From positions 1 to 64,000 of the forward strand of contig CABIKM010000030.1 of the NCBI GenBank assembly GCA_902196205.1: a stretch of DNA of 64,000 nucleotides, in the 5' to 3' direction. Below, piece by piece: positions 46,680-62,052 of this stretch (the stretch's first letter is position 1; the number at the start of each line of letters is the position of its first letter). The stretch is from Candidatus Methylomirabilis lanthanidiphila (GTDB lineage: Bacteria > Methylomirabilota > Methylomirabilia > Methylomirabilales > Methylomirabilaceae). The notes beneath the pieces are model-generated. The model ran no database searches. It saw nothing but the letters and a program-made list of their open reading frames with translations, and was not told the DNA's origin. The position numbers and the translations under genes are program-made.

Positions 46680-46708
46680 CTTATACAATCCCATATTTCC
46701 CATGTCAA
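46680..46708 (-). promoter_or_regulatory. Sigma-70 promoter of the Rrf2/cysteine operon
   Basis: On the minus strand TTGACA (46703-46708), a 17-base spacer and TATAAG (46680-46685) predict a start near 46673. The spacer carries two ATGGGA copies. Confidence 0.75.
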
Positions 46709-46724
46709 GAACTTTTTTGAGTCC
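46708..46724 (+). repeat. Left copy of a 17-bp direct repeat flanking the 46.7-62.0 kb island
   Basis: AGAACTTTTTTGAGTCC occurs here and again at 62036-62052 in the same orientation. The copies lie at the two borders of the methylase-helicase island, beside rrf2 and purN respectively, so they are candidate attachment or insertion-site repeats. The T-run lowers complexity. Confidence 0.5.
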
Positions 46725-46904
46725 AAAATCGACATATTCAAATTAGGACACTACCGCCGGACAGAAAGCTGGTGACAATCCGCAACGCCGATGACGGGAC
46801 GCGAAGCGTCCGCGCCATCGATGAGTTCAGCAGTCGGCGTTTACGCCATCCGCTGGAACGATTTGTAAGGCACTTTGTGTATCAAGCTTAAATGGTCGCT
46901 GGCC

Positions 46905-49900
46905 CTATTTACTCTTTCGCTTGCCGGCCTTGGTGGGCGTCGAAGCTTCTTGCGATGCCGTGCGCTGATGGTTGAGGGCGAGCAGACGGCGCAGGACTTC
47001 CTTGCGGGCGGCGGGGCTGATGGTGTAACGGACGCGGTCGTTCTCCGGCAGAGTTTCGACTTCGTGGAAGTCGTGGCCGAGATTCAGGTCGGTCCAGCCG
47101 TAGGCGTCACGGATGGCGTTGTCCAGTTCGCGGTGCAGGCGGCGCAATTCGAGGACGCCCTGATAGCCTGCTTCCGCGTCTTCCGGCGATTTCTTGCTGA
47201 TCTTTGCGACTACGGCGGGCGTAAGGTCGCGGGTGTGGAACAGGTTGTAGATGTCGGTCAGACCGAGCCAGAGCTGGCGCATGAGTCCGCGGCGGTGTTC
47301 GTGGTAGCGCTCGCCGATTCCCGCCAGCGCAGGATTCGCAGTCTGCCAGAGACCCTCAGGGAAGGGGAAGGTGTCGAAGCACTTCGATGGCGAGTAGCGC
47401 AGATCCTGCTTCAGCGCTCCGCTGTATTTGCGCGCCCAGACTTCGTGCAGGGTGGATTGGACGACGGCGTAGAGGTCCCAGCGGTCTGTAGTGAACACGT
47501 AGACGGCGTGAGTGAAGACGTAATTGCTCGGCAGAGCAGAGAAGTTAAGGTATTTTGTGGTGGCTGCTGCGACGAAGCAGCGTTCGCGTGAGCGAATCGC
47601 GTTGTAAAGCCCTGTGGCCCGCTCAGCGTATTGCCACCAGCGTTCCCGACGGGCTTCACGGCTCGCTTTTTCGCGCTCGGGTTTAACAAGATTGAGTACA
47701 CGCTCAAACGCCGCCACGTAAGATTGGGCGCGCTCCATTGGCCAGTCAAAGAAGTTGATAATTGAACGGCCTGCCCCCTGGTCCGGATTACTGTTGAGGT
47801 CCTGTCCAATGAGCACAGGGAATACCACGTCCCGATTCCGAGGGTCTGCCTCAATCAGCCTAGCGGCTTCGGCGTGCGTGAGAAGAAAGCCCTCACCGAG
47901 AAAGATCGAGCCCTGAAAAACGCGCTTGGTGTTCTCCTGCAATGACTTTGGTTCACCTTCGTCCTCGTCGCCCTCAAAATAGGCGCTAATGACTGGCACG
48001 TCCATGCCATCCAGTACCCGCTTACCGCGCCATACGCCCTTGTGGAGCGCCACAAGTGAAACCACGAGGTTGGCGCGCCCGGGCCACTTGATGCCGCGCA
48101 CAGCAAAGGTGATTGTTCCACCCTGCGCTAGCACTTGCTCCAAGCCATCCTTCCGGATGTCGCCGTCCTTGATGGAATTGGTCGTAATGAAGGCGGTGAA
48201 GCCGCCAGGACGCAACAGGCCGTAAATTCGGCGGACGAAAAAGACGACGAGATCGCTCAGACCGGCCGGGGCATATTCCCACTTAGCGTAGGTGCAGAAC
48301 GCATGCCCATAGGTACCACTCAATGCCTGTCCGCCGAGATACGGCGGATTGCCAAGAATGCAGTCGAATCCGCCGCGCTGAATGATCTCCGGAAACTCCA
48401 GAAACCAGTGGAAGACATGCTTCTGCTCGCCCAATACCCAGGCTGCGGCCGTGGCCTGCCCTTGCGGGCTATGCTCGCCGTTCCAATAACGGCGGAACTC
48501 GGCATCGGTAATGAGCTTGGGCAGATTCGTCGGTATCTTGGGCAGATAGAACTGTGCAATGGGGATTGCCGCAATCTGGTTGAGCAACCAGGCGTCCTGA
48601 CTTTGTGTGAAGTCCTGATAGCGGCGTTTCTTCGCAGCGATGTCCTCCGGGGTGCGCTCGGGCAGGATCGAAAGCTCGTGCCAGCCGCGCAGGATGTCGT
48701 CGAGTTGTTTCTGAATGGCCGGAGCAAGCGGGAGTTGACCGGTCGCGTGATCCTTGCGTTCTGCCTTGTTGCGCTTGCGCACGAGGGCCGCGGTTTCTTT
48801 GTCGTCGCCAGGCATCGTGACGAACGCTTCGTCGGGCACGCCGCGCTCAACCTCCTCGCGCCGGGCAAAACCGACGATCGCGTTGCCGCACTTGATGTGA
48901 TGGTCCAGAAAGTTGAGCGGCTCGCCAGGGTTGTGGGCCTCCAGCCAGAGGGCGACCTTGCAGAGTTCGACGGCCAGCGGGTTCAGGTCGACGCCGTAGA
49001 TGCATTCGCGGATGACGTCGCGGATCGCGGCGCGGAAAGCCGAAGGCGATGGTTGCTCCTCGCCGGTGCGGACGATTGCGAGCTGGGTGGCGATTCGCCG
49101 TGCGGCGGCCAGCAGGATGTGGCCGGATCCGCAGGAGATATCCGCGACCCGCAGGGAGAGCAGCGCTTGTTCGGGATCGCGTTCCTTCAGTTTTTCCGCG
49201 ATCAGGTAGTCGAGCGAATGCTTGATGAGCGGCTGGACCAGATCGTCGTCCGTATAGTGACTCTGGGTGTCATCTGCGCCCGGTTGCAAATCGAACGTTG
49301 GAGCACCCGCTTCAAGGCCGAATACCGGGTTGAATTTCAACAGGCCTTCGTAGACGGATCCGAGTTCCTCCACGTTGAGGGCAGCGTAATTGACACGAAT
49401 GACCTGCCGGGTATCGGGATGCCGGTACAGGCCGAGTGAGCGCAGGCACGCGAGCAACACGTCGTTGCCGAGCGTCGCGCGGCCGAGCGGGCCGATGGCA
49501 TCCGGGCTGAACAGATCACCGGCCAGCGGAGCCAGACCGATCCCTGAACCAGGCCCATCGGCTTCGAACAGGCGAAACGTGGCCCGCAAGGCGAGCCAAA
49601 GATCATGGTGGCGGCGGTCGGCAAGATAGCGCTTCTCGGCCAGGCGCCGCAGATGCTGCACGCTGTAGTAGCGGTCGTAGGTATCGCGCTTGACGGCGGC
49701 TGTCCGGGGCGGAAAGACCAGGCCGCGCTCCTCGATCACCATCAGGAACAGCAGGCGGTAGATCAGCCGCAACAGGTACTGGTAGTACACATCCGGCTTC
49801 AGCTCGCCAGAGGCTACGGCATTGCGCAGCGTTTCGTTTGCCGGGTGGGCCAAAAAGCCGTTGGCGAAATCGCGGATCGCCCGTTCGACCGCCCGGCTCA

Positions 49901-50618
49901 GGCCATTGCGGATCCGCGAACCGGAATCGAGCGAATCCTGGTGGTAGCGCTCGATGAGGCTTTCCGTCGCAACGTCCTGCGACGCGGGCAGGCGCGTCGC
50001 GTGCAGCAGACGGTAGAGGACGGCGAAATCGGCGAACAATCCATCAGTGAAAATGCGGTCGAGGTCAAACTCCAGGTAGGTGAGCTTGACGAGCCGCGAA
50101 CTGTCGCGCAGCAGGCGCAGCAACCGGCCGTTGGTCACCAGGCCATACAGATCCTCGTCAAGCGTGAGGTACTCCTGCACCATTGCGTGTGCCGACATGC
50201 GCAGGACCGCTTTTTCCGGCTTACGGTCCAGTCCTGACGGCTCGCGGCAGCCGGTGATATGCACCGGGGTCTGGCCGCGATTGGCGACGCGATGCGAAAT
50301 AGCGTAGGTCTTGCCATTCAACTCAGCGCCGCGCGACTGGTATTCGAGCTGGTAGCCCAAGAGGCCAAGCAGCGGCACGACCCATTGCTGGCGCGTTTCA
50401 GTGGTGGCGGCGGAATCCGGTTTCAGCGTTTCAAGCTTGCGCTGGAAGATCCGCCAGTAGTCCTGTGCATCGGCCCACGCCCGCGCGATCTCGTCCTTGA
50501 CCCTGGCGTTGCGGTCGAAACCAAAGTCCGCCGCTTGCTGGCCCGGTGCATCCTCAAGTCGTTCGAGGATGTCGGGGGAGAGAATGGCCCTCTCGATGCG
50601 GATGCTGGGGTAGTTCAC
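46905..50618 (-). CDS. Large N6-adenine DNA methylase of a DISARM-like cassette
   Basis: The 1,237-residue Eco57I/PglX/DrmMI-like methylase has the SAM motif VADISCGSGHILLAAARRIA (about 487-506) before the catalytic ILGNPPYLGG (about 755). A long N-terminal helical part (1-470) and a C-terminal target-recognition-like part (about 900-1200) flank the core. The tail is lysine-rich. It would mark host DNA for the helicases encoded upstream; it lies 10 bases past the SNF2 gene. Length and partners match class 1 DISARM DrmMI, yet drmB and drmC are absent. PglX of BREX is the alternative, but no other BREX gene is present. Confidence 0.85.
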   Translation of the reverse strand: MNYPSIRIERAILSPDILERLEDAPGQQAADFGFDRNARVKDEIARAWADAQDYWRIFQRKLETLKPDSAATTETRQQWVVPLLGLLGYQLEYQSRGAELNGKTYAISHRVANRGQTPVHITGCREPSGLDRKPEKAVLRMSAHAMVQEYLTLDEDLYGLVTNGRLLRLLRDSSRLVKLTYLEFDLDRIFTDGLFADFAVLYRLLHATRLPASQDVATESLIERYHQDSLDSGSRIRNGLSRAVERAIRDFANGFLAHPANETLRNAVASGELKPDVYYQYLLRLIYRLLFLMVIEERGLVFPPRTAAVKRDTYDRYYSVQHLRRLAEKRYLADRRHHDLWLALRATFRLFEADGPGSGIGLAPLAGDLFSPDAIGPLGRATLGNDVLLACLRSLGLYRHPDTRQVIRVNYAALNVEELGSVYEGLLKFNPVFGLEAGAPTFDLQPGADDTQSHYTDDDLVQPLIKHSLDYLIAEKLKERDPEQALLSLRVADISCGSGHILLAAARRIATQLAIVRTGEEQPSPSAFRAAIRDVIRECIYGVDLNPLAVELCKVALWLEAHNPGEPLNFLDHHIKCGNAIVGFARREEVERGVPDEAFVTMPGDDKETAALVRKRNKAERKDHATGQLPLAPAIQKQLDDILRGWHELSILPERTPEDIAAKKRRYQDFTQSQDAWLLNQIAAIPIAQFYLPKIPTNLPKLITDAEFRRYWNGEHSPQGQATAAAWVLGEQKHVFHWFLEFPEIIQRGGFDCILGNPPYLGGQALSGTYGHAFCTYAKWEYAPAGLSDLVVFFVRRIYGLLRPGGFTAFITTNSIKDGDIRKDGLEQVLAQGGTITFAVRGIKWPGRANLVVSLVALHKGVWRGKRVLDGMDVPVISAYFEGDEDEGEPKSLQENTKRVFQGSIFLGEGFLLTHAEAARLIEADPRNRDVVFPVLIGQDLNSNPDQGAGRSIINFFDWPMERAQSYVAAFERVLNLVKPEREKASREARRERWWQYAERATGLYNAIRSRERCFVAAATTKYLNFSALPSNYVFTHAVYVFTTDRWDLYAVVQSTLHEVWARKYSGALKQDLRYSPSKCFDTFPFPEGLWQTANPALAGIGERYHEHRRGLMRQLWLGLTDIYNLFHTRDLTPAVVAKISKKSPEDAEAGYQGVLELRRLHRELDNAIRDAYGWTDLNLGHDFHEVETLPENDRVRYTISPAARKEVLRRLLALNHQRTASQEASTPTKAGKRKSK

Positions 50619-50628
50619 CGTATGCGGC

Positions 50629-53499
50629 TCATCTCTGTCCGCCGTCCGGCAGAAGGATATACACGCCGAGAAGATCCATGGGGAGAACGGGATACACGAC
50701 CTGGAAGCGCTGGCGATCCATCAGTGCACTGAAGCGCTCGTGGGCATCGACCAGCCGCTTCGATTGCTGCTCGGCTATGGCATCGAACTCCGCTCGCAGG
50801 CCGGTGAGAAGTGTGAGTTCGTTTTCGAGGAAGCCTGCGCGCGCCTGCGGCGAAAGATCGGATGAGGCACGCGCTTCCGCGAGCAGCTTCTTGGCCTCTG
50901 CGTGATCCAGGAACTCCTTTTGCTGCGGTGTCCCGCGCCAGCCCCAAAGCAGCATCTCCTCGGCCACGATCTTGTGCCCCGCTTTGCTCTGCTCGATCAC
51001 GTTGCGGCAACGGAACAGGAGCAGCGTAGTCTTGGTGGCGACCTGCCGGGTACGAACCACGGCGGCACGGGCGGCACGCTTGTCCACACGCGCGAGGGTG
51101 TTGGCCATGATGAGTTGGCAAAGCTGCTCGACAAAGCGATGGTTACGCCCAATGTAGTGATAGCCCTCGGGCGTGGGCGACTGAAAGCTCACCTTGACCG
51201 GTTCTCCGGCCGGCAGCAGTTCACGCAGGGAAGGAGGAAGATTGCCCGTGACGATGCGGTAGCCCTTGCGATCGTGACGGATCTCGACCCCGAGCACATT
51301 ATTGAGCGTCGCGGAGACGAACTCTTCCACGGCCATGGGATCGCCGATGGCCTCGTCCACCTCGCGCAGGTCCGCCTCGATCTCCTGAGCTTTGATCGCG
51401 TTTTGCGCGAAAATGCTGCGGGATGCCTTTTCCCGTTCGGCGGCCTCGTCCACCTTGCGGGTGACGTTGGCCTTGGCAGTAGCGGCCTCATCAAAATCAC
51501 CGAAGTCGAACTGGATCTGGTGTTTGTCGCGCCTCTTTTCGATATGCCGGGCGGGATTGAGCAGCAACGCCTGGGTGATGGTGTCGATAATGCTCTGGGA
51601 ATCCTCTGGGAACGGCACGTTAATGCCGGTGGCGCGCTTGATCTCGCGCACCTTGCGCAGGAGCACATCGAGCACGATGCCGTCGATCGGGTTGTCGGCG
51701 CCATAGAGAAGGCAGGCCTTCACCTTGGGTGCGAGTTGGCCGAAACGATCGACGCGGCCTTCGCGCTGTTCCAGGCGGTTCGGGTTCCAGGGCAGATCGT
51801 AGTGCAGTACGCCGGTAAAGTGCTCCTGCAGATTAACGCCTTCGCTCAGGCAGTCGGTGGCGATGAGAACGCGCCGAGGCGAGCGGCCCATTTCCTCAAT
51901 GCGCTGCTTGCGCAACTCGTCGGGCAGTTCGCTGGTGATGACCTGAAGGTCGAGCTTTGGGAATTTCTTCTTCAACGCCGGCGCCAGCCGTTCGCTCACA
52001 TAGTTAGCCGTCGCGATGTAGCGGCAGAAGACGACGGGATTGAAGCCGGTGCTCAACCAGTCGTCGAGGATCAACTCAGCGGAGGCGAGCTTGCTGTCAT
52101 CTTTGATATTGCTCAGTCCGGCAAGTTCCTGCGCGAAATCCCGAAGCCGCCGCCGCTGGTGTTCGGTCCAGTCATTGCGCTCAATGATTTGCGTCGGAGC
52201 ATTGTCGCCCTCGAAACCGAACTCGGTATCGCCGACCGGGTTCTCTTCGGTCTCGCGCGCGTTGTCGGATGTCTCTGCATCGTCGCCTGCCGCGGACGCC
52301 AGGTTCGACAGGCGGGTGTTCAGCATTTCGATGCCTGCCGCGGGGCTTGACATGACCCCGCGCAACAGCGCGAGCGCGGTCCAATACTGAACCCGCTGCT
52401 GCCGGCCGCGCGCAGGGTCCGGCGCGATCAGCTTACGGGCGAAGTCGAGGATCGCTTCGAAGAAACGGGAATAACCGCTCGAAAGGTCATACGGCCATTC
52501 AAAAGCCTCGCGCTCCGGGAAGGGCGTATTCTCGCCCATCCACTTCTCGACGTCGGCGCGTTTGCGTTGCACAAAAACGCGAGCCAGTTCCCGTCGATCC
52601 GCCTGCGTGGAATTGGGCAAGTCGAGGGTTTCGAACTCGGGCCGGAGCAGGCCAAGCAGCGAGTGGAATTCCTCGGGCTTGCCGCTGTGCGGGGTGGCGG
52701 TGAGCAGGATCAGTTGCTGTCCGGGCTTGGCAGCAATGCGGCTGACCAGGTGGTAGCGCTGCTGCTGACTGGCCGAGGCGCCTGTCGGCCGCGCGCAGGT
52801 GTGGGTTTCATCGACGATCACGAGTTCAGGGCACTGCTCGACGAACACGTCCCGGCGAACGTCGGACTTGATGAAGTCGACGCTGATAACCTGATAGGGA
52901 TAGTAGTCGTAGACGCTCGTATCGCCCTGGATCTGCCGGTCGAGGCGAGCCTGGGTGTTCGAGCGGATGATGACCGCTTCCAGATCGAGTTTGGCCCGGA
53001 TTTCCGTCTGCCACTGCTCGCACAGGTGCGGGAGGCAGATGACGGCGAAGCGACTGATCTTTCGCCGCTCCAGCAACTCCCTGACGATGAGCAGTGCCTC
53101 CACGGTCTTGCCCACGCCCACGTCGTCGGCGATGAGCAGCCGCACTGATTCCTGCCGCAGCGCCATGATGAGCGGCACCATTTGGTAGGAACGCGGGCGG
53201 AACGAAAGCTTGGCCAGCGCACGGAACGGGCCGGCGCCGTTACGGAACGCAAGCCGGGCGGAGTCATACAGTACACGCGCGGTGCTAATGTCGCCGAGAT
53301 CCGCAGCAGTTGGCTCCTCGAATCTAGCATCCGCCGGCTGGTCACTTTCGATCGCCAGGGGCAGGTAGATGCCGGTGATCTCGTCATCCGAACCGCCCAG
53401 CGGTTTAACGATCAGGAGGTCGTTGTCCTCCGAGGGAAGCACGATCCATTCGCGCCCGCGAAGCGAGACCAGCTTGCCGGGCTGGAGCAGTGTCGTCAT
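50629..53499 (-). CDS. SNF2-family helicase of the DISARM-like cassette (DrmD-like)
   Basis: The 956-residue SF2 translocase has Walker A IADDVGVGKTVEALL (about 123-137), a DETH box in LVIVDETHTC (about 230) and TATPHSGK motif III. The C-terminal lobe has TDCLSEGVNLQ and NRLEQREGRVDRFGQ motifs (about 560-590). A helical tail (about 650-950) includes many charged segments. Its ATG overlaps the stop of the large helicase by four bases (ATGA). It probably translocates on DNA to guide modification or nuclease action. Confidence 0.87.
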   Translation of the reverse strand: MTTLLQPGKLVSLRGREWIVLPSEDNDLLIVKPLGGSDDEITGIYLPLAIESDQPADARFEEPTAADLGDISTARVLYDSARLAFRNGAGPFRALAKLSFRPRSYQMVPLIMALRQESVRLLIADDVGVGKTVEALLIVRELLERRKISRFAVICLPHLCEQWQTEIRAKLDLEAVIIRSNTQARLDRQIQGDTSVYDYYPYQVISVDFIKSDVRRDVFVEQCPELVIVDETHTCARPTGASASQQQRYHLVSRIAAKPGQQLILLTATPHSGKPEEFHSLLGLLRPEFETLDLPNSTQADRRELARVFVQRKRADVEKWMGENTPFPEREAFEWPYDLSSGYSRFFEAILDFARKLIAPDPARGRQQRVQYWTALALLRGVMSSPAAGIEMLNTRLSNLASAAGDDAETSDNARETEENPVGDTEFGFEGDNAPTQIIERNDWTEHQRRRLRDFAQELAGLSNIKDDSKLASAELILDDWLSTGFNPVVFCRYIATANYVSERLAPALKKKFPKLDLQVITSELPDELRKQRIEEMGRSPRRVLIATDCLSEGVNLQEHFTGVLHYDLPWNPNRLEQREGRVDRFGQLAPKVKACLLYGADNPIDGIVLDVLLRKVREIKRATGINVPFPEDSQSIIDTITQALLLNPARHIEKRRDKHQIQFDFGDFDEAATAKANVTRKVDEAAEREKASRSIFAQNAIKAQEIEADLREVDEAIGDPMAVEEFVSATLNNVLGVEIRHDRKGYRIVTGNLPPSLRELLPAGEPVKVSFQSPTPEGYHYIGRNHRFVEQLCQLIMANTLARVDKRAARAAVVRTRQVATKTTLLLFRCRNVIEQSKAGHKIVAEEMLLWGWRGTPQQKEFLDHAEAKKLLAEARASSDLSPQARAGFLENELTLLTGLRAEFDAIAEQQSKRLVDAHERFSALMDRQRFQVVYPVLPMDLLGVYILLPDGGQR

Positions 53500-56400
53500 C
53501 GCACTTGCCTGAAGATGTCAGGTCTGGCAGCCACTTTTTCGGCCAGATTATCCTTATAGTAGTAGACCCAGACCTCATCGCCCTTGGCGATGATGGACTG
53601 GCGTTTTGCCGAGTCCACGGTTTTCAAAGCGGGGTCATCGTGCGGTGTTCCGTCACAGAAGACCCAGATTCGTGGTTCATAATAGAAATCCGGTTGCACA
53701 TACAGGCCGTCGACCCGCTTCTGGGCCGCGTCGGGCAGGCGTAAACCGTTCTGATAGAGGAATTCAAGGAACTTCCGCTCGGTCGAGGAATTGGGGTCGA
53801 CCGCGCGCAGCAAAGCCTGGTATTGGTCCTCATAGCTTCCAAATCCGGTGTTTGTCTGAATCTCAATGCTGCAGATGCGTAGCTTCTCCAGCGCATCCTT
53901 GATCAGATGGCGGTCGATAATCTTGTGGTTGCGCTGGTTGTAATAGCTCAGCAGATCGTCGTAGCTCGCCGGACCCTTGTAGCCCGCATCATCGTAACGA
54001 CAGAGCGTAATCGCCTGCTCTACTACCTTGTGGAATACCGTTATGTCGTCGACGAATTGCGACAGGATCCCAAGGCTGCCCTCTGAAGCTTCGTAGAGGA
54101 GAATGTTGGGAGCCTCAAGGTCGCCCATGATGACCACGCCGATCTCGTTCGGCTCTACCTGGAACACGCCCTCGATGGCGCGCTTGAGCGCATGTTGCAA
54201 AGTAATGACGCCGTCTGGCTTGAGGCCGAGCGGCGGAATCGGCTCGATATACAGCGCGTCGGCGAGGTTCGACGTCCACAGCTTGACCAGCCGGAACTCT
54301 TCCTTGAAGTTGCTGTCCGGCCCGGGCATGGAACTGCGCCAATCTCCGGATACCACCCCTATGGGGAAGCCTTCCGATTGCTGCGATCGCCACTGTCTGT
54401 TCACATGCACCAGCCGCGCTGCCGGCACGTAGCGCAGGTTAAGCAATGCACTTTCGCTGGAGCGCACCACAGCCTTCCTGATACGCTCCAGATGACCCCC
54501 ATCCACCGTGAAATACGTATTGATCTCGTAGCCGCGAGAGACCCGTTCCTCCTCTTCGCAGGAGATGCGGTCGATTTCCTCGGCACGCGATTCGGTCATC
54601 TCCAACAGGTGGTGCAGATGCTCCTTGTTTGCGTTGTCGCCGAGATTCAGGCCACTGAAGGGGCAGATTTCCAGATCCTTCTGCTCCGCAGTCAGGAAGT
54701 ATCCGGATTTCTTGCTGATCTTTGCTTCGATCAGCGCGGACTCGGTGTCCTGCACGACGAGCTGCGTCACACGATACTTGCGCCCGTTGTGGTAGATGCG
54801 GTTGAGCGGGCCGAACTCACGCAGGGCAATCGCGCGCGGACGGGAGATAAAATTCCCCGACGAATCGCTGGTTGGCAGAAAAATCCGCAGAGGCAAGCGT
54901 GTAAAGTTGTAGCCCGGAAGGAAACCCTCCGACGCCAAGTAGCGGTAGGGATAAAACTCCGACAGCTCCGACGACCTGCCGCCCAGATCGTTGCGCAGCA
55001 GGTCGAGTTGGCGGGTGGCCTGATCCTGGTTGCGTTTGTGTTTTCGATATTCATCACTACCAAGTCCCAGAGTACCGCTCTCGATCCGTTGGGTCGCAGT
55101 GGTGAGAATCGTCCTCGCTGAACGATACAGGCGGCGCCAGCGATCCAGCGCCGAATCGAGGTGGTCGGCGAGTTCAGCCAGGTTCTGCTCTACCCATTGA
55201 TCGGAGTACCAACTAGTCGCCTGGTTCTGGAGTTCCGGTGCAAAGTCCGCGATCACTTTCTTGAAGCCGAACTTCAGTTCGTTGAACTTACCCGGCAGTA
55301 TCGCCAATCCGGCGCGAACCTCGCTCGCCAGCGGCATCTGATCGTTGTCATCCTCGACCAGCCGCATGATGGACAGTCGTGCTCCACCCTGTTCTTCCAG
55401 GCCCGGCATGCCGACCTCAGACACTGCGAGCGCGTTCAGGTGCGTGAGCAACAGTTCGCGATTGCAAAGGTCGAGACGTGACGCCTGAACTGCACCGGCG
55501 ACGAGTTCGGTCTGCTGCTGGAAGTAATGCCGATCATGGGGCGAGTAGCTGGAACAATAGGTGAACACCAGCGCGCCCTGGCCGCTTCGCCCTGCACGGC
55601 CGGAGCGCTGGGCGTAGTTCGATGCATTGGGCGGCGCGTTGCGGAGATGAACGACGTTCAGGCCCCCGATATCGATCCCCAGTTCCATGGTGGGGGAACA
55701 GAAAAGCGCGCTGATCTCGCCTTCGCGAAATTGATCTTCGCGCGCGATGCGGGTATCGGTGTCCAGTTGCCCCGTATGATCTTCTCCGCGCAGCCGCCTG
55801 GTGTTGGAGAAATCACGGCGGTACATTTCCCGAAAAAACTCGTTTGGCCGTGGCGCCTGGTCCTTGTATGAGCGCCGCTTGATCAAATCCGCTTTCACAG
55901 TGTCACCGTCGCCCAGGCGCCAGATGATCTTCTCGATCTTGAGGCGATAAACAGGCACCTCTTCGTTCTGCTCACTGCGAGCGGTCTGGCCTTTGAGGTA
56001 ATCCGCCTGTTCCAGCTTTTTCGTCAACAGGAGGATGAAGTCGCGATAGCGGTCTCCCCTGAGATCCACGTCCAATCCGCGTTGACGGATGTACAACTTG
56101 ATGAATTTCCCAAGCGCGCTGCCCGGCCCCATACTCTTGGACGATAGTTTCGCGGAGCGGTGCAATGGATAATAGCGAATGAAGAACGGTTCCCGCAGTT
56201 CCTCGTTCCGGTCCAGCGTCCAGGGTGCCCGCAGCATCTCACGAAACTGTTTTTCGTTTTCCTTGAGCCTGGACTGAGTGAGAAAGTTTTCGCTGTGAAT
56301 CGCGTATTCGAGCCGGAAGAAGTCAAGGATCGTGCAGAGAAAATCATTTCGGTCTTCGTGGCTCAGTTGGTTCAATAGCGTCGTGTCCTGCCAGAACTCA

Positions 56401-58610
56401 TCCTCCGCAGCCACTTCGCTCAGCTCCAGATACTCGATGGCAAGCAGGGCGCACTGCTCGAGATTGGGCAGGATAATCCGCCAGCTACGCCGCAGATCGG
56501 CAACCGCTCGGTAGAAGAGATAGGTCTGGAACTGCTGCTCGAAGAGGCGCCGCACATTGGCAAGAGGAGGCTCTTCATTACGATTGGCATAATCCAGGAA
56601 TGGCAGTCCAAGCGCCAGGAAGACAGCTTCGCCAAGGGTGGCGTAAGTGAGCGTGTTGTCCGGCGCTTCCCTGAGGGCCTTGTGGATACCGGCGCGAAGC
56701 CGGACGACCTGAACAAAATCATTGAAGTGTCCAGCCTGAAGCGCGGCATCCTGCCGGTTATCGGTGAAGCTCAGAAGCTTTTGATCTCTGGCGTAGTAGC
56801 CGGCGTCGTTCAACCGGTTGAGAATCGAGAACGCGGTGATAGTTGTCGAGGTGCTGCGCCCCTCGCTTCCCAGTTTGGTCAGTTTTGTTCCTTCGTTTGT
56901 TTTCGTGTCGAAGAAGACACCGCCGGTTGGGTCGAAGAGCAGCGGCGCCTTCATGAACCAGCCCGACCACCTCAACGGCTCTGTTTCCGAGCAGTGTCCG
57001 AATTCGTCAAAGTAAAGCTTGGTGGGAAAGGAGGCCTTTTGCTTTGATTGCGGAACCGGTCCGCCTTTCGTCATGCGGAACCACGAAGGCGGCAAAAACT
57101 CCATATCCTCGGCGGGATCCCAGACGTCCTCGCCTATGATGAGGTAGCCGTCTGTTATCTCATCGTCTTCATCAGAGATCTCCCGGAATTCGCGCGGTTC
57201 TAACCGATTACCGTTACGGGACACGCAGATAAACGCATGACCTGTTGCGCGGCTGAACACATTGGGAAAGATGGGCTTCTTGTCGTCTTCGTCATGTTTG
57301 AAGACGCCTGGCTCCAGTGTGATGAACCGGTTCTCGTCCTGGTCGAGCGTCGTGTAGACCGAACCCGTTTGAGAGATGAACTGGTGTAACTTGAAGGGCA
57401 GTATCGTGTAGCGCTGCCCCTCATCCTGCAGCCCTTTGTTGACGGTGCTGATCCACTGCAGGAGTACCGCGAGAAACTGACGGCAAACCGCATCCGCCAA
57501 TCCGGAATCCTCGGATAGCGCCGCGACGATCTCGCTGATCCTTTGGGGTGTACGGCGAGCGAGGTGGCCATCGCGCAATTCCAAGGCAACGCGGTTCTCC
57601 AGCCACACGGCAACCGGATGGGTCTTCAGTTGTTCGATTGATGTCTCCGGATTGATGCCCGACTGAATGGCCGCCGCAAGCGCTACGCGAGTTGGCATCG
57701 CGCCGGAAAACGAGAGTGATCGGTCCAACGTTTCGTTGATCACCTGTTCCGCGGAAAACGGCTTTCCGAAGAGCCTCGTCGCAACCCCCGCAACTTCTCC
57801 CCGTCGCGAGCCCGCGCTGCCGATGGACACCATGGTCGCGGACGTCCCGATACAGGTTACGTCATGGGTGCAGCGCGCCCGAATGCGACGGATCAGCATG
57901 GCTACATCCGCGCCTTGGCGACCGCGATAGGTGTGAAGTTCGTCGAAAACGAGGAAGCGCAGGTTCTCGAATATGGCGTCTCGAATAGACCGCTCCCGAA
58001 TACGGGTCAGGAGCAACTCAAGCATCATGTAGTTGGTCAGGAGGACCTGGGGCGGGTTTTCCCGCATCTGCTGGCGCTTTTCCTCTTTTTCCTGCCCGGT
58101 GTACTGGCCAAAGGTAATCGGGAACTCTCTCGTGCCCGCTTCGTAGTTGTCCTTGTAGCGATTGAATTCCTCCGACTGCGAGTTGATCAGCGCGTTCATC
58201 GGATAGACCACGACAGATGTCACCCCCGGTGAGCCGGGATTGGAGAGCAGGTGGTGGAAAATCGAGCCGATGTAGGTGAGCGATTTGCCCGATCCCGTTC
58301 CGGACGTGACGATGAAATCCTTGCCGGCGGTACCCAGCTCGATCGCTTCTACCTGGTGCCGGTAAAGTGAATAACCCTTGAAGATGTCGGCGATGTCACG
58401 GTGCAAGGTGCCGTCGCGAGAGAGGTCTGCAACGCTCTTTGCCATCTCGAACGCCGGATTGAACTGGAGGAGTGGCTCGGGCCAGAGCTTTCCTTTTTCC
58501 AACTCCCCCTCAACGATGGCACGAATCGCCGGATCGTCAATGTTGAGAAAGCTGCGGATATACGTCTCATAATCCTTAACGATCTGCGAATGTGTGTGGA
58601 AAACATTCAT
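53496..58610 (-). CDS. 1,704-residue DEAD/DEAH helicase with DUF1998-like region and C-terminal nuclease-like domain
   Basis: First gene of the operon. Walker A VTSGTGSGKSLTY is at about 101-113, the DELH box at 223-226, and motif VI QRSGRAGRSGQGALVF at about 1000. Residues about 1480-1590 resemble DUF1998/MrfA-type modules (EIGVVIMGDLEAPNILLYE, then LLSYYNQRNHKIIDRHL). The zinc cysteines normally just before SYxNQ are mostly replaced; only LCRYDD remains. Residues about 1610-1704 look like a Vsr/DUF559-type PD-(D/E)xK nuclease: QPDFYYEPRIWVFCDGTPHD, then KGDEVWVYYYKD. Related large helicases occur in DISARM (DrmA/DrmB) and Druantia (DruE). The start follows a short leader; the gene overlaps the SNF2 start. 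Confidence 0.82.
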   Translation of the reverse strand: MNVFHTHSQIVKDYETYIRSFLNIDDPAIRAIVEGELEKGKLWPEPLLQFNPAFEMAKSVADLSRDGTLHRDIADIFKGYSLYRHQVEAIELGTAGKDFIVTSGTGSGKSLTYIGSIFHHLLSNPGSPGVTSVVVYPMNALINSQSEEFNRYKDNYEAGTREFPITFGQYTGQEKEEKRQQMRENPPQVLLTNYMMLELLLTRIRERSIRDAIFENLRFLVFDELHTYRGRQGADVAMLIRRIRARCTHDVTCIGTSATMVSIGSAGSRRGEVAGVATRLFGKPFSAEQVINETLDRSLSFSGAMPTRVALAAAIQSGINPETSIEQLKTHPVAVWLENRVALELRDGHLARRTPQRISEIVAALSEDSGLADAVCRQFLAVLLQWISTVNKGLQDEGQRYTILPFKLHQFISQTGSVYTTLDQDENRFITLEPGVFKHDEDDKKPIFPNVFSRATGHAFICVSRNGNRLEPREFREISDEDDEITDGYLIIGEDVWDPAEDMEFLPPSWFRMTKGGPVPQSKQKASFPTKLYFDEFGHCSETEPLRWSGWFMKAPLLFDPTGGVFFDTKTNEGTKLTKLGSEGRSTSTTITAFSILNRLNDAGYYARDQKLLSFTDNRQDAALQAGHFNDFVQVVRLRAGIHKALREAPDNTLTYATLGEAVFLALGLPFLDYANRNEEPPLANVRRLFEQQFQTYLFYRAVADLRRSWRIILPNLEQCALLAIEYLELSEVAAEDEFWQDTTLLNQLSHEDRNDFLCTILDFFRLEYAIHSENFLTQSRLKENEKQFREMLRAPWTLDRNEELREPFFIRYYPLHRSAKLSSKSMGPGSALGKFIKLYIRQRGLDVDLRGDRYRDFILLLTKKLEQADYLKGQTARSEQNEEVPVYRLKIEKIIWRLGDGDTVKADLIKRRSYKDQAPRPNEFFREMYRRDFSNTRRLRGEDHTGQLDTDTRIAREDQFREGEISALFCSPTMELGIDIGGLNVVHLRNAPPNASNYAQRSGRAGRSGQGALVFTYCSSYSPHDRHYFQQQTELVAGAVQASRLDLCNRELLLTHLNALAVSEVGMPGLEEQGGARLSIMRLVEDDNDQMPLASEVRAGLAILPGKFNELKFGFKKVIADFAPELQNQATSWYSDQWVEQNLAELADHLDSALDRWRRLYRSARTILTTATQRIESGTLGLGSDEYRKHKRNQDQATRQLDLLRNDLGGRSSELSEFYPYRYLASEGFLPGYNFTRLPLRIFLPTSDSSGNFISRPRAIALREFGPLNRIYHNGRKYRVTQLVVQDTESALIEAKISKKSGYFLTAEQKDLEICPFSGLNLGDNANKEHLHHLLEMTESRAEEIDRISCEEEERVSRGYEINTYFTVDGGHLERIRKAVVRSSESALLNLRYVPAARLVHVNRQWRSQQSEGFPIGVVSGDWRSSMPGPDSNFKEEFRLVKLWTSNLADALYIEPIPPLGLKPDGVITLQHALKRAIEGVFQVEPNEIGVVIMGDLEAPNILLYEASEGSLGILSQFVDDITVFHKVVEQAITLCRYDDAGYKGPASYDDLLSYYNQRNHKIIDRHLIKDALEKLRICSIEIQTNTGFGSYEDQYQALLRAVDPNSSTERKFLEFLYQNGLRLPDAAQKRVDGLYVQPDFYYEPRIWVFCDGTPHDDPALKTVDSAKRQSIIAKGDEVWVYYYKDNLAEKVAARPDIFRQVR

Positions 58611-58673
58611 AAGAGGTAGTCCGGTTGGTTAGGACAGGTTTTGGGTTCCCTTAACCCCAATAATTGTGAATCT

Positions 58674-59606
58674 TCATGTTTCATAATTTGGTTCATCCGG
58701 CAGGTTGGTGGGATGGTAGTCCGCTACTTCTAGCATACGTTCTTTGGTGGAAGCGTGCACCGTTTCGGATTTCGCTATTGCGCGTAAACATGTGCCAAAG
58801 GTCTTCCAGATGCCTTCATATGAGTCGTGCAACATGCCGCAAGGGTCTTTCTTCAATGCATTAACGGCGCTGGCTTTAAACCTCAAATTGTGCCCACACG
58901 CATGATCGATCATCCATTGCAATGCGATATCCGATAGCCCACATTTAGGGTACCCGCCGCCGACATCGGAATGTACGCCGGGAAACCACGTTTGTTTGAC
59001 ACGTATTTCGGTATTCCATTTCAGTACAGGGAAAAATATGCGTTTTTCATCAATCGCCATTGCGTGGTAACCTGCAACGACGCATTTAGGCAGATCGTTG
59101 TCGTTGAAATCGTCATCGGTTGTGGTTTTTACCGTATCCCACACACCCAGCATTTCTACCGGAATGTCGAAAAGCCTGCCTCTTTTCTTTAACTCCTTAA
59201 TACTGAGGGCATCGCGCTTCAAGTAAAGTTGCCAGGCTCGCTCAACATCACGGGCTTTTCCCGGTACACCGCATTGCGCGATTAGTCCTGCCAACCGGCG
59301 TGCAGCATAAGCACCCCTGCTAAAGCCAAAAATAAACACCTTATTATCTTCTCTTGCCCAGTCCGTGTCCGCAAACCGTTTTCTCAAGAAGTGGTATGCG
59401 CCGAGAATTTGCCGATCCAGTCCTTTGCCATAAATACCACCGGGTAGTGCTTCCCAGTGCGCAGTACCGACGCCCTCTTCATAATGAGTAACCTGGTTTT
59501 TCGCGGTGCATGCGTTCAATAACTTTGCAACATTGGTGAGTGCCGTCTCATCGGTATCATTCCATGTGCCGTCGCAGCCAATGATTAAATTCCGGACGTT
59601 GGCCAC
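58674..59606 (-). CDS. DUF2235 alpha/beta hydrolase (T6SS lipase-like)
   Basis: The 310-residue hydrolase starts at GTG 59606 behind GGGAGGTGA. It has NLIIGCDGTWND (front strand and aspartate), the nucleophile elbow GFSRGAYAARRLAGLI with Ser near 95, and GVWDTVKTT and GVHSDVGGGYP with the acid and histidine. DUF2235 includes type VI lipase effectors of the Tle1 class and stand-alone hydrolases. No VgrG or PAAR gene is visible. The preceding gene encodes a lipoprotein 23 bases upstream, the layout of lipase plus immunity lipoprotein, though no data prove this. It is in the defence island but not in the helicase operon. Confidence 0.8.
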   Translation of the reverse strand: MANVRNLIIGCDGTWNDTDETALTNVAKLLNACTAKNQVTHYEEGVGTAHWEALPGGIYGKGLDRQILGAYHFLRKRFADTDWAREDNKVFIFGFSRGAYAARRLAGLIAQCGVPGKARDVERAWQLYLKRDALSIKELKKRGRLFDIPVEMLGVWDTVKTTTDDDFNDNDLPKCVVAGYHAMAIDEKRIFFPVLKWNTEIRVKQTWFPGVHSDVGGGYPKCGLSDIALQWMIDHACGHNLRFKASAVNALKKDPCGMLHDSYEGIWKTFGTCLRAIAKSETVHASTKERMLEVADYHPTNLPDEPNYET

Positions 59607-59629
59607 TTTATCACCTCCCTTCAACAGTG

Positions 59630-59971
59630 TTAGTGAGCCGGCTGATATATTTCTTCGTCATCTTCCTGGTCCGGCGTGCCGTCACACCACCACTCAACGG
59701 TCTGTGGCACATAGAATCCCATCGAAATGATCGACACGAATGCATATACTGCATTGGTATGATAGCGTACACGATACAAGCCTCGACCGTTTTTGCACTT
59801 TTCCACCGGTGGCTCGGACCAAACGAAGCTATAATACGAACCATGTACGGTATGTGTGCCTGTTCTTGATTTCGGTGTTTTTTGGCCATCGCCTTCAATC
59901 GTCATAGTGGCGCAACCGGATATACTGACGATCATACAGCAGATCAACATCGCCCGAATAGTATTGACCAT
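59630..59971 (-). CDS. Bor-like lipoprotein
   Basis: The 113-residue product has a lipobox SISGC (Cys20) and the Bor-family plan: GSYYSFVWSEPPVEKCKNGRGLYRVRY, then YAFVSIISMGFYVPQTVEWWCDG. Bor of phage lambda is a surface lipoprotein expressed by the prophage. Cysteines at about 64 and 101 may form a disulfide. It precedes the DUF2235 hydrolase and may protect the envelope from it (inference). Confidence 0.7.
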   Translation of the reverse strand: MVNTIRAMLICCMIVSISGCATMTIEGDGQKTPKSRTGTHTVHGSYYSFVWSEPPVEKCKNGRGLYRVRYHTNAVYAFVSIISMGFYVPQTVEWWCDGTPDQEDDEEIYQPAH

Positions 59972-60070
59972 ATCCCCCTCTTCCTTTCATCGTGGGATTC
60001 CGTTAACGAGGCTGTAGAAAAACTCCAAAAAAAAGTCCTTCGAGGCCTCAGCAACAGACCATGATTTTCC

Positions 60071-60156
60071 TTACTGCCCAACGGCTCCGAGCCTGCGGCT
60101 CTCTCTGAGCCGCGCGCTGTTTGTGCGCGTCGGCTCTTACCGGTTGTTGGGCAGTA
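60071..60156 (-). other. attC-like imperfect palindrome
   Basis: The outer arms TTACTGCCCAAC (60071-60082) and GTTGGGCAGTAA (60145-60156) pair perfectly. GCCCAAC and GTTGGGC fit integron R'' and R' boxes (RYYYAAC/GTTRRRY). Inner stems include GCGGCTC/GAGCCGC. It lies just past the stop of the 60169-60936 gene, as attC sites do after cassette genes. No integrase is in the window; a terminator-like palindrome is the alternative. Confidence 0.45.
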
Positions 60157-60168
60157 AAATGCGGGCAT

Positions 60169-60936
60169 CTATATTGCCAGGGCTGCGTCGATCTCAAGCA
60201 TTACGATTGCTGTCTGGAAGACAACGCGACGCGCATCAATCCATTTTAGAGGTTCGCCTTCGCGCAGTGCTCCATGTTCCTGTCGCTGGACCAGATCGCT
60301 GACTGTGCCCCAGTAGATAATAAGCGCATCAAGGAACGCACGCACTTTATCACCCAGCTTCTGCGCATTGAGGACCGCCCGGATCCTGGAGACGGTCCTT
60401 GCCTTGTCGGCCTCGACGTTGGGGGGTCGGAAGCGCTCCACGAGGGCAGTCGCAAATTCTTGCATTGCCTCGCGGAGCAGGTGTCCGATCGTGGTGAGCG
60501 CCTTGTCACTGTCGTCGCTCCACAGAAGGTTTTCAGCCTCCTGCCATTTCGCATACGCAGAACGATACCGAGACTGAAAGGCGTGGCTCTGAATGTACTC
60601 GCGGATAGACACCTGGACGCGCTGCACCGGCTCACCACGACGGCGCATCATCTCCCCGTAGTAAGCAAACCCCTCGGGAGGTACGTAGAACCCCTTCAAG
60701 CGGGGCGAGGGATATGAGATCACGATCAGACCGACTCGGGCGAGCGTGTCAATGTCGCCTTCAAATATCCGGCGGTCAGTATTGATCCACCCCGGGTGAG
60801 CGAGCTGAACTCCAGCCGGTCCGAGAGTGTTGAGAATAATGAAGGGAACGCGTTCTGGACGCGGGACGCGCCTCTCTGCTTCGACGAGGTCACGGAAGAG
60901 TTGCTCTTGCTCAGGTTCCAGATTGACGCGTGACAC
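60169..60936 (-). CDS. Unknown island protein with winged-helix-like front and helical back
   Basis: Family not recognised. In the 255-residue product, residues about 60-105 (DTLARVGLIVISYPSPRLKGFYVPPEGFAYYGEMM) look like a winged helix. Residues 120-255 are almost all helical (ALTTIGHLLREAMQEFATALVERF, DKVRAFLDALIIYWGTVSDLV), resembling the helical bundles of abortive-infection or HEPN proteins, but I see no RxxxxH motif. It shares a near-identical promoter block with the hicBA operon nearby, so common control is likely. An attC-like element follows. Confidence 0.55.
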   Translation of the reverse strand: MSRVNLEPEQEQLFRDLVEAERRVPRPERVPFIILNTLGPAGVQLAHPGWINTDRRIFEGDIDTLARVGLIVISYPSPRLKGFYVPPEGFAYYGEMMRRRGEPVQRVQVSIREYIQSHAFQSRYRSAYAKWQEAENLLWSDDSDKALTTIGHLLREAMQEFATALVERFRPPNVEADKARTVSRIRAVLNAQKLGDKVRAFLDALIIYWGTVSDLVQRQEHGALREGEPLKWIDARRVVFQTAIVMLEIDAALAI

Positions 60937-61447
60937 GGACTGACTTCTCCCCTATCGTTTACTGATTATTCTGGTCGGCATATCCAACCCTGAAAACCTC
61001 AACAATTGCGGCGATTGTCCTGCCTTTCCAAGGGCTTGTCAAGCTGTCCACCGCCTGCCGTTGCCGACACACACTGGTCGCATAATCCCATTGTGGCTGC
61101 GGAGAAATGGGTGCCAGGGTCAGAGCGTCTGCTGGAATGCAAACCCCTCTCGCGCCTCTATGGAACACATGGTATGGATTAGTGTGGAGCGAGAAGCGTC
61201 AAGCGGTTGCTGACCATGCTTCGCAACGACACTGCGCGTTGAATTGCTTCACTTGCGGCTCGCAATGATGCCGCGGTAGCTCGGACCTTGCACCGTGCGC
61301 GGCCTTCATCGGGACCGGGGACTCTGCACTTGGCACCAGAAACCTTGGCGGTGACGTTCGAGTTTCTGAAGGGTCAGCTTGGCCATTTTGAGGTTAGGGG
61401 TAGGATGTGTAGCGGGACTCCAGGGCGGCTCGGGGTTGCTACACTCG
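60937..61447. other. Intergenic stretch between the unknown gene and hicA
   Basis: Apart from the minus-strand promoter at 61014-61042, no gene is convincing. The frames present (for example 61288-61491) have no ribosome site or family character. A segment near 61225-61272 (CACTGCGCGTTGAATTGCTTCACTTGCGGCTCGCAATGATG) resembles GC-repeat debris common between bacterial genes. Confidence 0.4.
61014..61042 (-). promoter_or_regulatory. Sigma-70 promoter within a duplicated block (copy 1)
   Basis: On the minus strand TTGACA (61037-61042), 17 bases and GACAAT (61014-61019). The 45-bp block 61001-61045 recurs with three differences at 61981-62025. This copy points at the 60169-60936 gene, with a start near 61007 and a leader of about 70 bases. 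Confidence 0.6.
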
Positions 61448-61666
61448 CTAAAGATTTTCCCATTCCGCCACGGAAATGCCCGCCTCTCTGAGAATGGCCC
61501 GCAGAAGATGGCCTCCGATGTCGCCTCGATGGGGATTCGGAATCCGAATGCGGAGATGGCCTTTGGTCATGAACTGGTGTTTTCCGCCAGAAGATGGACC
61601 ACGAAACCCAAGCTGGTGGAGGCCGCGAATCAAGGCCGCTCGAGTTGTGGGTCCAAGGCGCGGCAT
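61448..61666 (-). CDS. hicA: HicA-type mRNA interferase toxin
   Basis: The 72-residue protein has a helix-strand front (ALIRGLHQLGFRGPSSGG) and the catalytic KHQFMTKG, then IRIPNPHRGDIGGHLLRAILREAGIS, the full HicA pattern. Its ATG shares one base with the hicB stop (TGATG). A longer reading to 61747 overlaps hicB and is rejected. It is the second hicA of the window; the two share little beyond the family motif. Confidence 0.85.
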   Translation of the reverse strand: MPRLGPTTRAALIRGLHQLGFRGPSSGGKHQFMTKGHLRIRIPNPHRGDIGGHLLRAILREAGISVAEWENL

Positions 61667-61908
61667 CAGGCAACTTCTTGGATGGTCAGGGTGATGCCGT
61701 CGATGGGTGGGAGCGGATGGCCCATTCTGAGTCCTAAGACAATCCACTCTTCCAAGACTTCTCGCAACTCCTCACGACAGGCTTCCAGCGTATCAGCCTG
61801 CGCCCACACCCCTTGAAAGCCTTCGATACTGGCAAAATATCCTTCTCCATCGGGCAGCATCTCATAGTGGGCTTTCCGTAGCGCGGCATTGATGTAAGTC
61901 GTTAGCAT
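61666..61908 (-). CDS. hicB: HicB-type antitoxin
   Basis: This is an 80-residue HicB: ALRKAHYEMLPDGEGYFASIEGFQGVWAQADTLEACREELREVLEEWIV. ATG 61908 follows AAGAGGTG. It precedes hicA by overlap. No DNA-binding domain is obvious; autoregulation would use partner contacts. The promoter at 61994-62022 is about 90 bases upstream. Confidence 0.85.
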   Translation of the reverse strand: MLTTYINAALRKAHYEMLPDGEGYFASIEGFQGVWAQADTLEACREELREVLEEWIVLGLRMGHPLPPIDGITLTIQEVA

Positions 61909-61993
61909 ACGCACCTCTTTTCTCGGACACTCATGTTCCCTCCATTGAGGGAACCATCACATCCCACCCCGGAAGCCTGCAACGATTGCAGCG

Positions 61994-62022
61994 ATTGTCC
62001 TGCCTTTCCAATGGCTTGTCAA
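61994..62022 (-). promoter_or_regulatory. Sigma-70 promoter within a duplicated block (copy 2)
   Basis: TTGACA (62017-62022), 17 bases, GACAAT (61994-61999) on the minus strand, directed at hicBA. It has the same spacing and nearly the same sequence as copy 1. Confidence 0.6.
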
Positions 62023-62035
62023 GCTCCTCCAGTAC

Positions 62036-62052
62036 AGAACTTTTTTGAGTCC
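62036..62052 (+). repeat. Right copy of the 17-bp direct repeat
   Basis: Identical to 46708-46724 (AGAACTTTTTTGAGTCC). It lies just outside hicBA and before purN, where the accessory island ends. Confidence 0.5.

What the first reader, a model, noticed from the sequence alone, without database searches (positions are those of the whole stretch)
46905..58610. Three-gene methylase / SNF2 / helicase-nuclease cassette resembling DISARM or Druantia but matching neither
The operon (overlapping or 10-base-spaced genes) holds a PglX/DrmMI-like methylase, a DrmD-like SNF2 helicase and a 1,704-residue helicase. The last joins a DUF1998-like module to a Vsr/DUF559-like nuclease fold (PDFYYEPRIWVFCDG). 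DISARM class 1 would also have separate drmA, drmB and drmC; Druantia has other small genes. The compact three-gene form may be a distinct type in which a fused helicase-nuclease does the cutting.
Basis: partly seen in the sequence, partly recalled or inferred. Interest (0 to 1): 0.7.

Follow-up and report, generated by a model that had tools for sequence, protein, structure and literature searches.

The report
Zinc-less ARMADA Type I defence operon
This is a three-gene bacterial anti-phage operon of a kind published in 2025 (ARMADA Type I), and the only unexpected part is that its large helicase-nuclease belongs to a lineage that has lost every zinc-binding cysteine pair the rest of the family keeps.

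Summary
Three intact, same-strand genes overlap by 4 nt or sit 10 nt apart and encode a YprA/DUF1998-family helicase ending in a Vsr/DUF559-type nuclease, a RapA/BrxHII-like SNF2 helicase, and a DrmMI/PglX-like adenine methylase with an MmeI-type TRD. It is not a new type, however: gene content, order and nuclease fusion match ARMADA Type I (Bell et al., bioRxiv Sept 2025, PMC12458937). A helicase tree places it with Type I, away from E. coli Type II and Druantia III.

New here: in 16 of 16 full-length members of its sub-lineage (and 3 fragments with no CxxC), the zinc-ligand cysteines of three sites, including the family-defining DUF1998 cluster, are substituted. The same positions are cysteine in 15 of 15 other Type I proteins and in Druantia III; Type II lacks only one. 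Motifs are intact and dN/dS against close relatives is 0.06-0.11, so this is a functional zinc-less form, not decay. The operon sits in a ~15.3 kb island between rrf2 and purN, flanked by perfect 17-bp repeats and absent from 14 congeners. Phage defence by this operon is inferred, not tested.

The parts
53496..58610 (-). YprA-family helicase with C-terminal nuclease (ArmC homologue), 1704 aa, first gene
   Evidence: tree
57813..58370 (-). RecA1: GTGSGKS (104), DELH (223), TSAT (256)
   Evidence: DEAD PF00270 90 bits; motifs
56922..57254 (-). lost zinc site 1 (residues 453, 456, 560, 563: S, T, D, G instead of C, C, C, C)
55491..55793 (-). RecA2 with QRSGRAGR (1001)
   Evidence: Helicase_C PF00271 49 bits
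54654..54716 (-). lost zinc site 2 (residues 1299, 1302, 1316, 1319: S, S, C, S instead of four C)
53955..54002 (-). lost zinc site 3, DUF1998/MZB cluster (residues 1545, 1549, 1552: K, S, D instead of C, C, C; C1537 is at a column that is variable outside the clade)
   Evidence: MZB match
53499..53813 (-). Vsr/DUF559-type nuclease domain; E1611, D1641, D1653, H1657
   Evidence: model segment pLDDT about 75-92
50629..53499 (-). RapA/BrxHII/DrmD-like SNF2 helicase (ArmA homologue); DDVGVGKT, DETH, TATPH, REGRVDRFGQ
46905..50618 (-). DrmMI/PglX-like N6-adenine methylase (ArmB homologue); DISCGSG (493), NPPY (757)
47355..48101 (-). MmeI-type target-recognition region; identity to nearest relatives falls to 43-63% here in places against 80-98% over most of the rest
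   Evidence: (PF20466)
46708..46724 (.). left 17-bp direct repeat AGAACTTTTTTGAGTCC, left end of island
62036..62052 (.). right 17-bp direct repeat, identical
46725..62035 (.). inserted island holding the operon; congeners have rrf2 next to purN

Best explanation
The operon is an ARMADA Type I anti-phage system acquired horizontally in a ~15.3 kb island. Inferred mechanism: the methylase, whose TRD sets the sequence read, marks or reads host DNA by N6-adenine methylation; the RapA/BrxHII-like SNF2 motor and the YprA-type helicase load on and translocate along incoming or replicating unmodified phage DNA; the C-terminal Vsr-type nuclease cuts it. Defence would act directly on the DNA, without killing the cell. 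Shown here: the genes, intact motifs, operon conservation, TRD diversification, purifying selection and horizontal acquisition. Inferred from relatives: antiphage activity, methylation, cutting, and the order of events. The helicase belongs to a lineage that has lost all three zinc sites conserved elsewhere, so its DUF1998 canopy and inserted domains must fold and work without structural zinc.
For: Definition, domain make-up and Type II experiments: PMC12458937: Type I order is YprA helicase, BrxHII-like, PglX-like; the Vsr nuclease is fused to the helicase; Type II defends directly and all four of its genes are needed. Gene content and families. Tree: Type I plus the window clade 96/98, re-run without long branches 99/97. 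E. coli ATCC 8739 Type II and Druantia III as references. Operon conserved in relatives; on plasmids. dN/dS 0.06-0.11. TRD divergence. Nuclease. The DUF1998 module still resembles MrfA (6znp, E=2e-6). Island. Zinc loss. Druantia III DruE, the closest biochemically studied relative, loads on 3' ssDNA and cuts (PMC13192584).
Against: No Type I system is reported tested in the papers read; all experiments are on Type II, which has a fourth gene (ArmD) absent here. The published Type I reference sequence (WP_108720193.1) could not be fetched for the tree. Whether the zinc-less clade lies inside Type I or beside it is unresolved (AU p=0.345 for the other Type I rows as one clade). In Type II the methylase catalytic motif is needed for defence itself, so simple host protection may be the wrong role for the methylase. 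Structure models are of middling confidence (pLDDT 71 and 74, pTM 0.53), and the Vsr domain was not confirmed by a fold search of its own.
Confidence: 0.8

Rival explanations
1. A separate, undescribed system type: a third branch next to ARMADA I and II, defined by the fused helicase-nuclease and by loss of zinc sites.
For: Wide gap in identity: all close kin are at 65-94%, all other plasmid hits at 38% or less; stem branch 1.0-1.2 changes per site; sister placement not rejected (p 0.345).
Against: Gene set, order, fused Vsr nuclease and methylase type are those published for ARMADA Type I. SNF2 and methylase relatives also track Type I (about 33-46% identity) rather than Type II (about 25-27%).
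Confidence: 0.1
2. A DISARM or Druantia variant that has lost or merged components.
For: Best PADLOC matches are labelled DrmMI, DrmD/DpdE and DruE.
Against: Matches are below the NCBIfam DrmD and DpdE cutoffs. The neighbouring island genes scanned gave no PADLOC hit and no drmA/B/C or druH is seen. DISARM DrmA and Druantia III DruE fall far from the window clade in the tree. The E. coli ARMADA II proteins hit the same DruE/DrmD models, so those labels reflect missing ARMADA models.
Confidence: 0.03
3. A restriction-modification-like operon kept mainly as a modifying or repair device (for example, handling of damaged or stalled DNA), with little effect on phages.
For: YprA/MrfA-family helicases also act in DNA repair (PMC12458937, housekeeping branches); Type I is untested.
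Against: Patchy, mobile distribution on plasmids, in islands and in a phage-tail contig, a fast-changing TRD, and toxin-antitoxin or AlbA_2 genes inserted in the operon of relatives fit conflict systems.
Confidence: 0.07

Closest known systems
ARMADA Type I (Bell et al. 2025, PMC12458937)
   Same: Gene set, gene order (YprA helicase, BrxHII/RapA-like helicase, PglX-like methylase), single C-terminal Vsr nuclease, tree placement.
   Different: Helicase lacks the zinc-binding CxxC motifs that the paper describes as conserved; the DUF1998 cysteines are also lost, which the paper reports only for Dpd.
ARMADA Type II (E. coli ATCC 8739 / NCTC 12900)
   Same: Homologous helicase, SNF2 and methylase; Vsr-type nuclease motif.
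   Different: Type II has the reverse order, a 2,113-aa helicase with 9 CxxC, and a fourth gene (GajB-like/RelE) absent here; SNF2 and methylase identity only about 25-27%.
Druantia III (DruE)
   Same: YprA-type helicase with a fused C-terminal nuclease domain region.
   Different: Druantia III has PLD nuclease domains and DruH, no methylase or SNF2 gene; DruE keeps its zinc cysteines.
DISARM Class 1
   Same: DrmMI-like methylase and DrmD-like SNF2 helicase.
   Different: DISARM splits helicase and DUF1998 module into drmA and drmB and has drmC; none of these is here.
Zinc-independent alternative ribosomal proteins (e.g. PMC5912738)
   Same: Loss of zinc-ligand cysteines with the protein otherwise kept (analogy only; abstract read).
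   Different: Unrelated proteins; no zinc regulation of the operon was tested here.

Membership tests
[quoted passage not shown]
   order held in relatives
ARMADA Type I | YprA helicase groups with Type I, apart from Type II and Druantia | tested here: met
   96/98 and 99/97; Type I labels rest on gene content, order and similarity, as the paper's own Type I reference was not available; nested versus sister unresolved
ARMADA Type I | C-terminal predicted active Vsr-type nuclease, single | tested here: met
   fold not confirmed independently
ARMADA Type I | No GajB/RelE-type fourth gene (Type II mark) | tested here: met
   next genes are rrf2 and a Tle1-like gene
ARMADA Type I | Beta-barrel in RecA2 with at least two conserved CxxC motifs | tested here: not met
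   zero CxxC in the helicase; ligand columns are S, T, D, G. The paper states this as a shared domain feature; its types are defined by tree position and operon make-up, which are met, so membership is claimed with this departure marked
ARMADA Type I | BrxA-like, MarR-like and coiled-coil inserted domains; one insert in the OB region | tested here: inconclusive
   models at pLDDT 71-74; weak PadR-type wHTH hits only, E above 0.2
ARMADA (any type) | Protects against phage, non-abortive | not testable with these tools
   experiments needed
DISARM Class 1 | Separate drmA, drmB and drmC genes | tested here: not met
Druantia | druH or other druantia genes, PLD-type DruE | tested here: not met
   DruE3 far off in tree
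ARMADA Type II | SNF2-methylase-YprA order and ArmD gene | tested here: not met

The most novel reading that the evidence does not exclude
A widespread, horizontally moving lineage of ARMADA Type I has turned its central helicase-nuclease into a zinc-independent enzyme: all three conserved zinc sites, including the DUF1998 site that names the family, were lost on the one stem branch of the clade while activity was kept. This could free defence from zinc supply or oxidation, or change how the canopy engages DNA.
Probability: 0.55. Interest if true: 0.55.

Novelty: new variant of a known kind. Interest (0 to 1): 0.42.

Why it matters
It ties a so far untested three-gene operon to a newly named defence family, so existing assays apply. 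The zinc-less lineage is a natural experiment on what the DUF1998 and inserted zinc modules do in YprA-family immune helicases: they are described as conserved, and in DruE they lie next to the DNA channel, yet here a whole clade does without them.

Tried and rejected
DISARM/Druantia labels from PADLOC: rejected because the known ARMADA II proteins hit the same models and the trees differ. Pseudogene or decay: rejected by dN/dS 0.06-0.11 and intact motifs. Alignment artefact for the zinc loss: rejected by alignment-free CxxC counts, 0 in all 19 window-clade sequences checked (18 counting the window, 1 more) against 4-9 in the other full-length homologues. General cysteine loss: rejected; other cysteines are kept. 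A truncated methylase: the extra ~190 aa C-terminal part of two close relatives is absent here, but other relatives lack it too. Fold search of the middle region gave nothing significant.

Full report
What is there. Three genes on the minus strand form one tight operon: helicase 53496-58610, SNF2 50629-53499 (4-nt overlap) and methylase 46905-50618 (10-nt gap). The helicase has DEAD, Helicase_C and MZB/DUF1998 domains with intact motifs. Its last ~105 residues carry the E / PDF / DG / H signature of Vsr/DUF559-type nucleases: 8, 7 and 1 of 17 aligned members match the DUF559, MTES_1575 and Vsr models (the window sequence alone does not), and the best solved relative is 3r3p, a 'mobile intron protein' (E=0.0056). 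The SNF2 protein is RapA/DrmD/DpdE-like. The methylase is DrmMI-like with motif I DISCGSG, NPPY and an MmeI TRD.

What it is. A 2025 preprint (PMC12458937) defines ARMADA: a YprA-like helicase with a BrxHII-like helicase and a PglX-like methylase. Type I generally has the helicase gene first, then the other two, and carries one predicted active Vsr nuclease at the helicase C-terminus. This is the window operon. Type II, tested in E. coli, has the reverse order and a fourth gene; it protects directly, without killing the cell. Using the ATCC 8739 locus, which holds both ARMADA II and Druantia III, and DISARM DrmA from a Nocardioides plasmid, a tree of 433 helicase-core columns groups the window with the 15 homologues assigned here to Type I by gene content and similarity (96/98), apart from Type II and Druantia III. 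Without the longest branches the support is 99/97. The paper's own Type I reference could not be fetched.

What is new. In the window helicase and 18 other members of its sub-lineage (65-94% identity) there is not one CxxC motif. The other full-length defence homologues have 4-9. The aligned positions 453, 456, 560, 563 (site 1), 1299, 1302, 1319 (site 2) and 1545, 1549, 1552 (site 3, the DUF1998 cluster) are cysteine in 15 of 15 other Type I proteins, in the deep Thermus homologue and in DruE3; Type II differs only at 1545 (D or H). In 16 of 16 full-length members of the window clade they are S, S/T, D, G/A; S, A/T/S, S/T; K/L, S, D. Only C1316 survives, with C1537 at a column that varies outside the clade. 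The clade is 100/100 supported on a stem of 1.0-1.2 changes per site. The paper reports loss of the DUF1998 cysteines only in Dpd and describes the RecA2 zinc barrel as general. The supplement could not be read, so whether its authors saw this lineage is unknown.

Is it functional? dN/dS against four relatives with usable dS is 0.06-0.11, and every helicase and nuclease motif column checked is kept. The C-terminal model still finds MrfA as its best PDB match (6znp, E=2e-6, low TM), so the canopy probably folds without zinc. Model confidence is middling (pLDDT 71 and 74).

Where it came from. None of 14 congeners has the operon. In many of them rrf2 and purN lie a few hundred bases apart; here they are 15.5 kb apart. 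A perfect 17-bp repeat, AGAACTTTTTTGAGTCC, stands at both ends (46708-46724 and 62036-62052). Congener homology to the left flank runs to about the end of the left repeat, and the one relative that aligns on both sides has a single similar copy. No integrase was recognised in the island. The nearest relatives are betaproteobacterial (91-94%), so the lineage moves between phyla.

How it likely works. Inferred from relatives: TRD-directed methylation marks or reads DNA, the two motors act on phage DNA, and the nuclease cuts. DruE of Druantia III, a studied relative, loads on 3' single strands and cuts in higher-order assemblies (PMC13192584). TRD divergence among close relatives (43-63% in places, against 80-98% over most of the rest) fits specificity switching. 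In Type II the methylase motif is needed for defence itself, so it may be more than a host shield.

Limits. No experiment on Type I is known to me from the papers read. Nested versus sister placement of the clade within Type I is open (AU p=0.345). Zinc loss is read from sequence; metal content is untested.

Noticed in passing
L003 17974-19533, L006, L011, L013, L008; L010 17982-19454; L007 9232-10067; L012; L028 18103-18737: The gap between the SNF2 and methylase genes is a slot with exchangeable genes in relatives: Schlafen AlbA_2/HATPase proteins, a DUF4062/HATPase protein, and toxin-antitoxin-like genes (UPF0175/PIN-like, Phd-like, Phd/VapC). It is empty in the window.
   Followed up: partly
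58674-59624: DUF2235/Tle1-like phospholipase-domain gene 63 bp upstream of the helicase on the same strand, not found beside the operon in fetched relatives.
   Followed up: partly
60984-62025: A HicA/HicB-like toxin-antitoxin pair (61448-61914) lies between two 62-nt direct repeats (85% identical).
   Followed up: no
L045 1140-1589 (G000:C15): A lone 149-aa ORF elsewhere in the same genome resembles the ARMADA C-terminal nuclease (41% identity), closest in look to zinc-bearing Type I; possibly a relic of another system.
   Followed up: no
L006, L010, L012, L020: The methylase gene is split or in two reading frames in several relatives, including D. radiodurans; may be sequencing error, decay or phase variation.
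   Followed up: no
L032 1131-9133: A zinc-less ARMADA Type I operon sits next to phage tail genes (major tail protein, tape measure) in a viral contig.
   Followed up: partly
L041 1-21076: A Nocardioides plasmid carries DISARM drmA/drmB a few kb from an ARMADA Type I operon.
   Followed up: no
L022 868-17240: A Thermus plasmid operon (SNF2, NYN, methylase, YprA helicase, 3'-5' exonuclease) whose helicase branches outside Types I and II in the tree.
   Followed up: no
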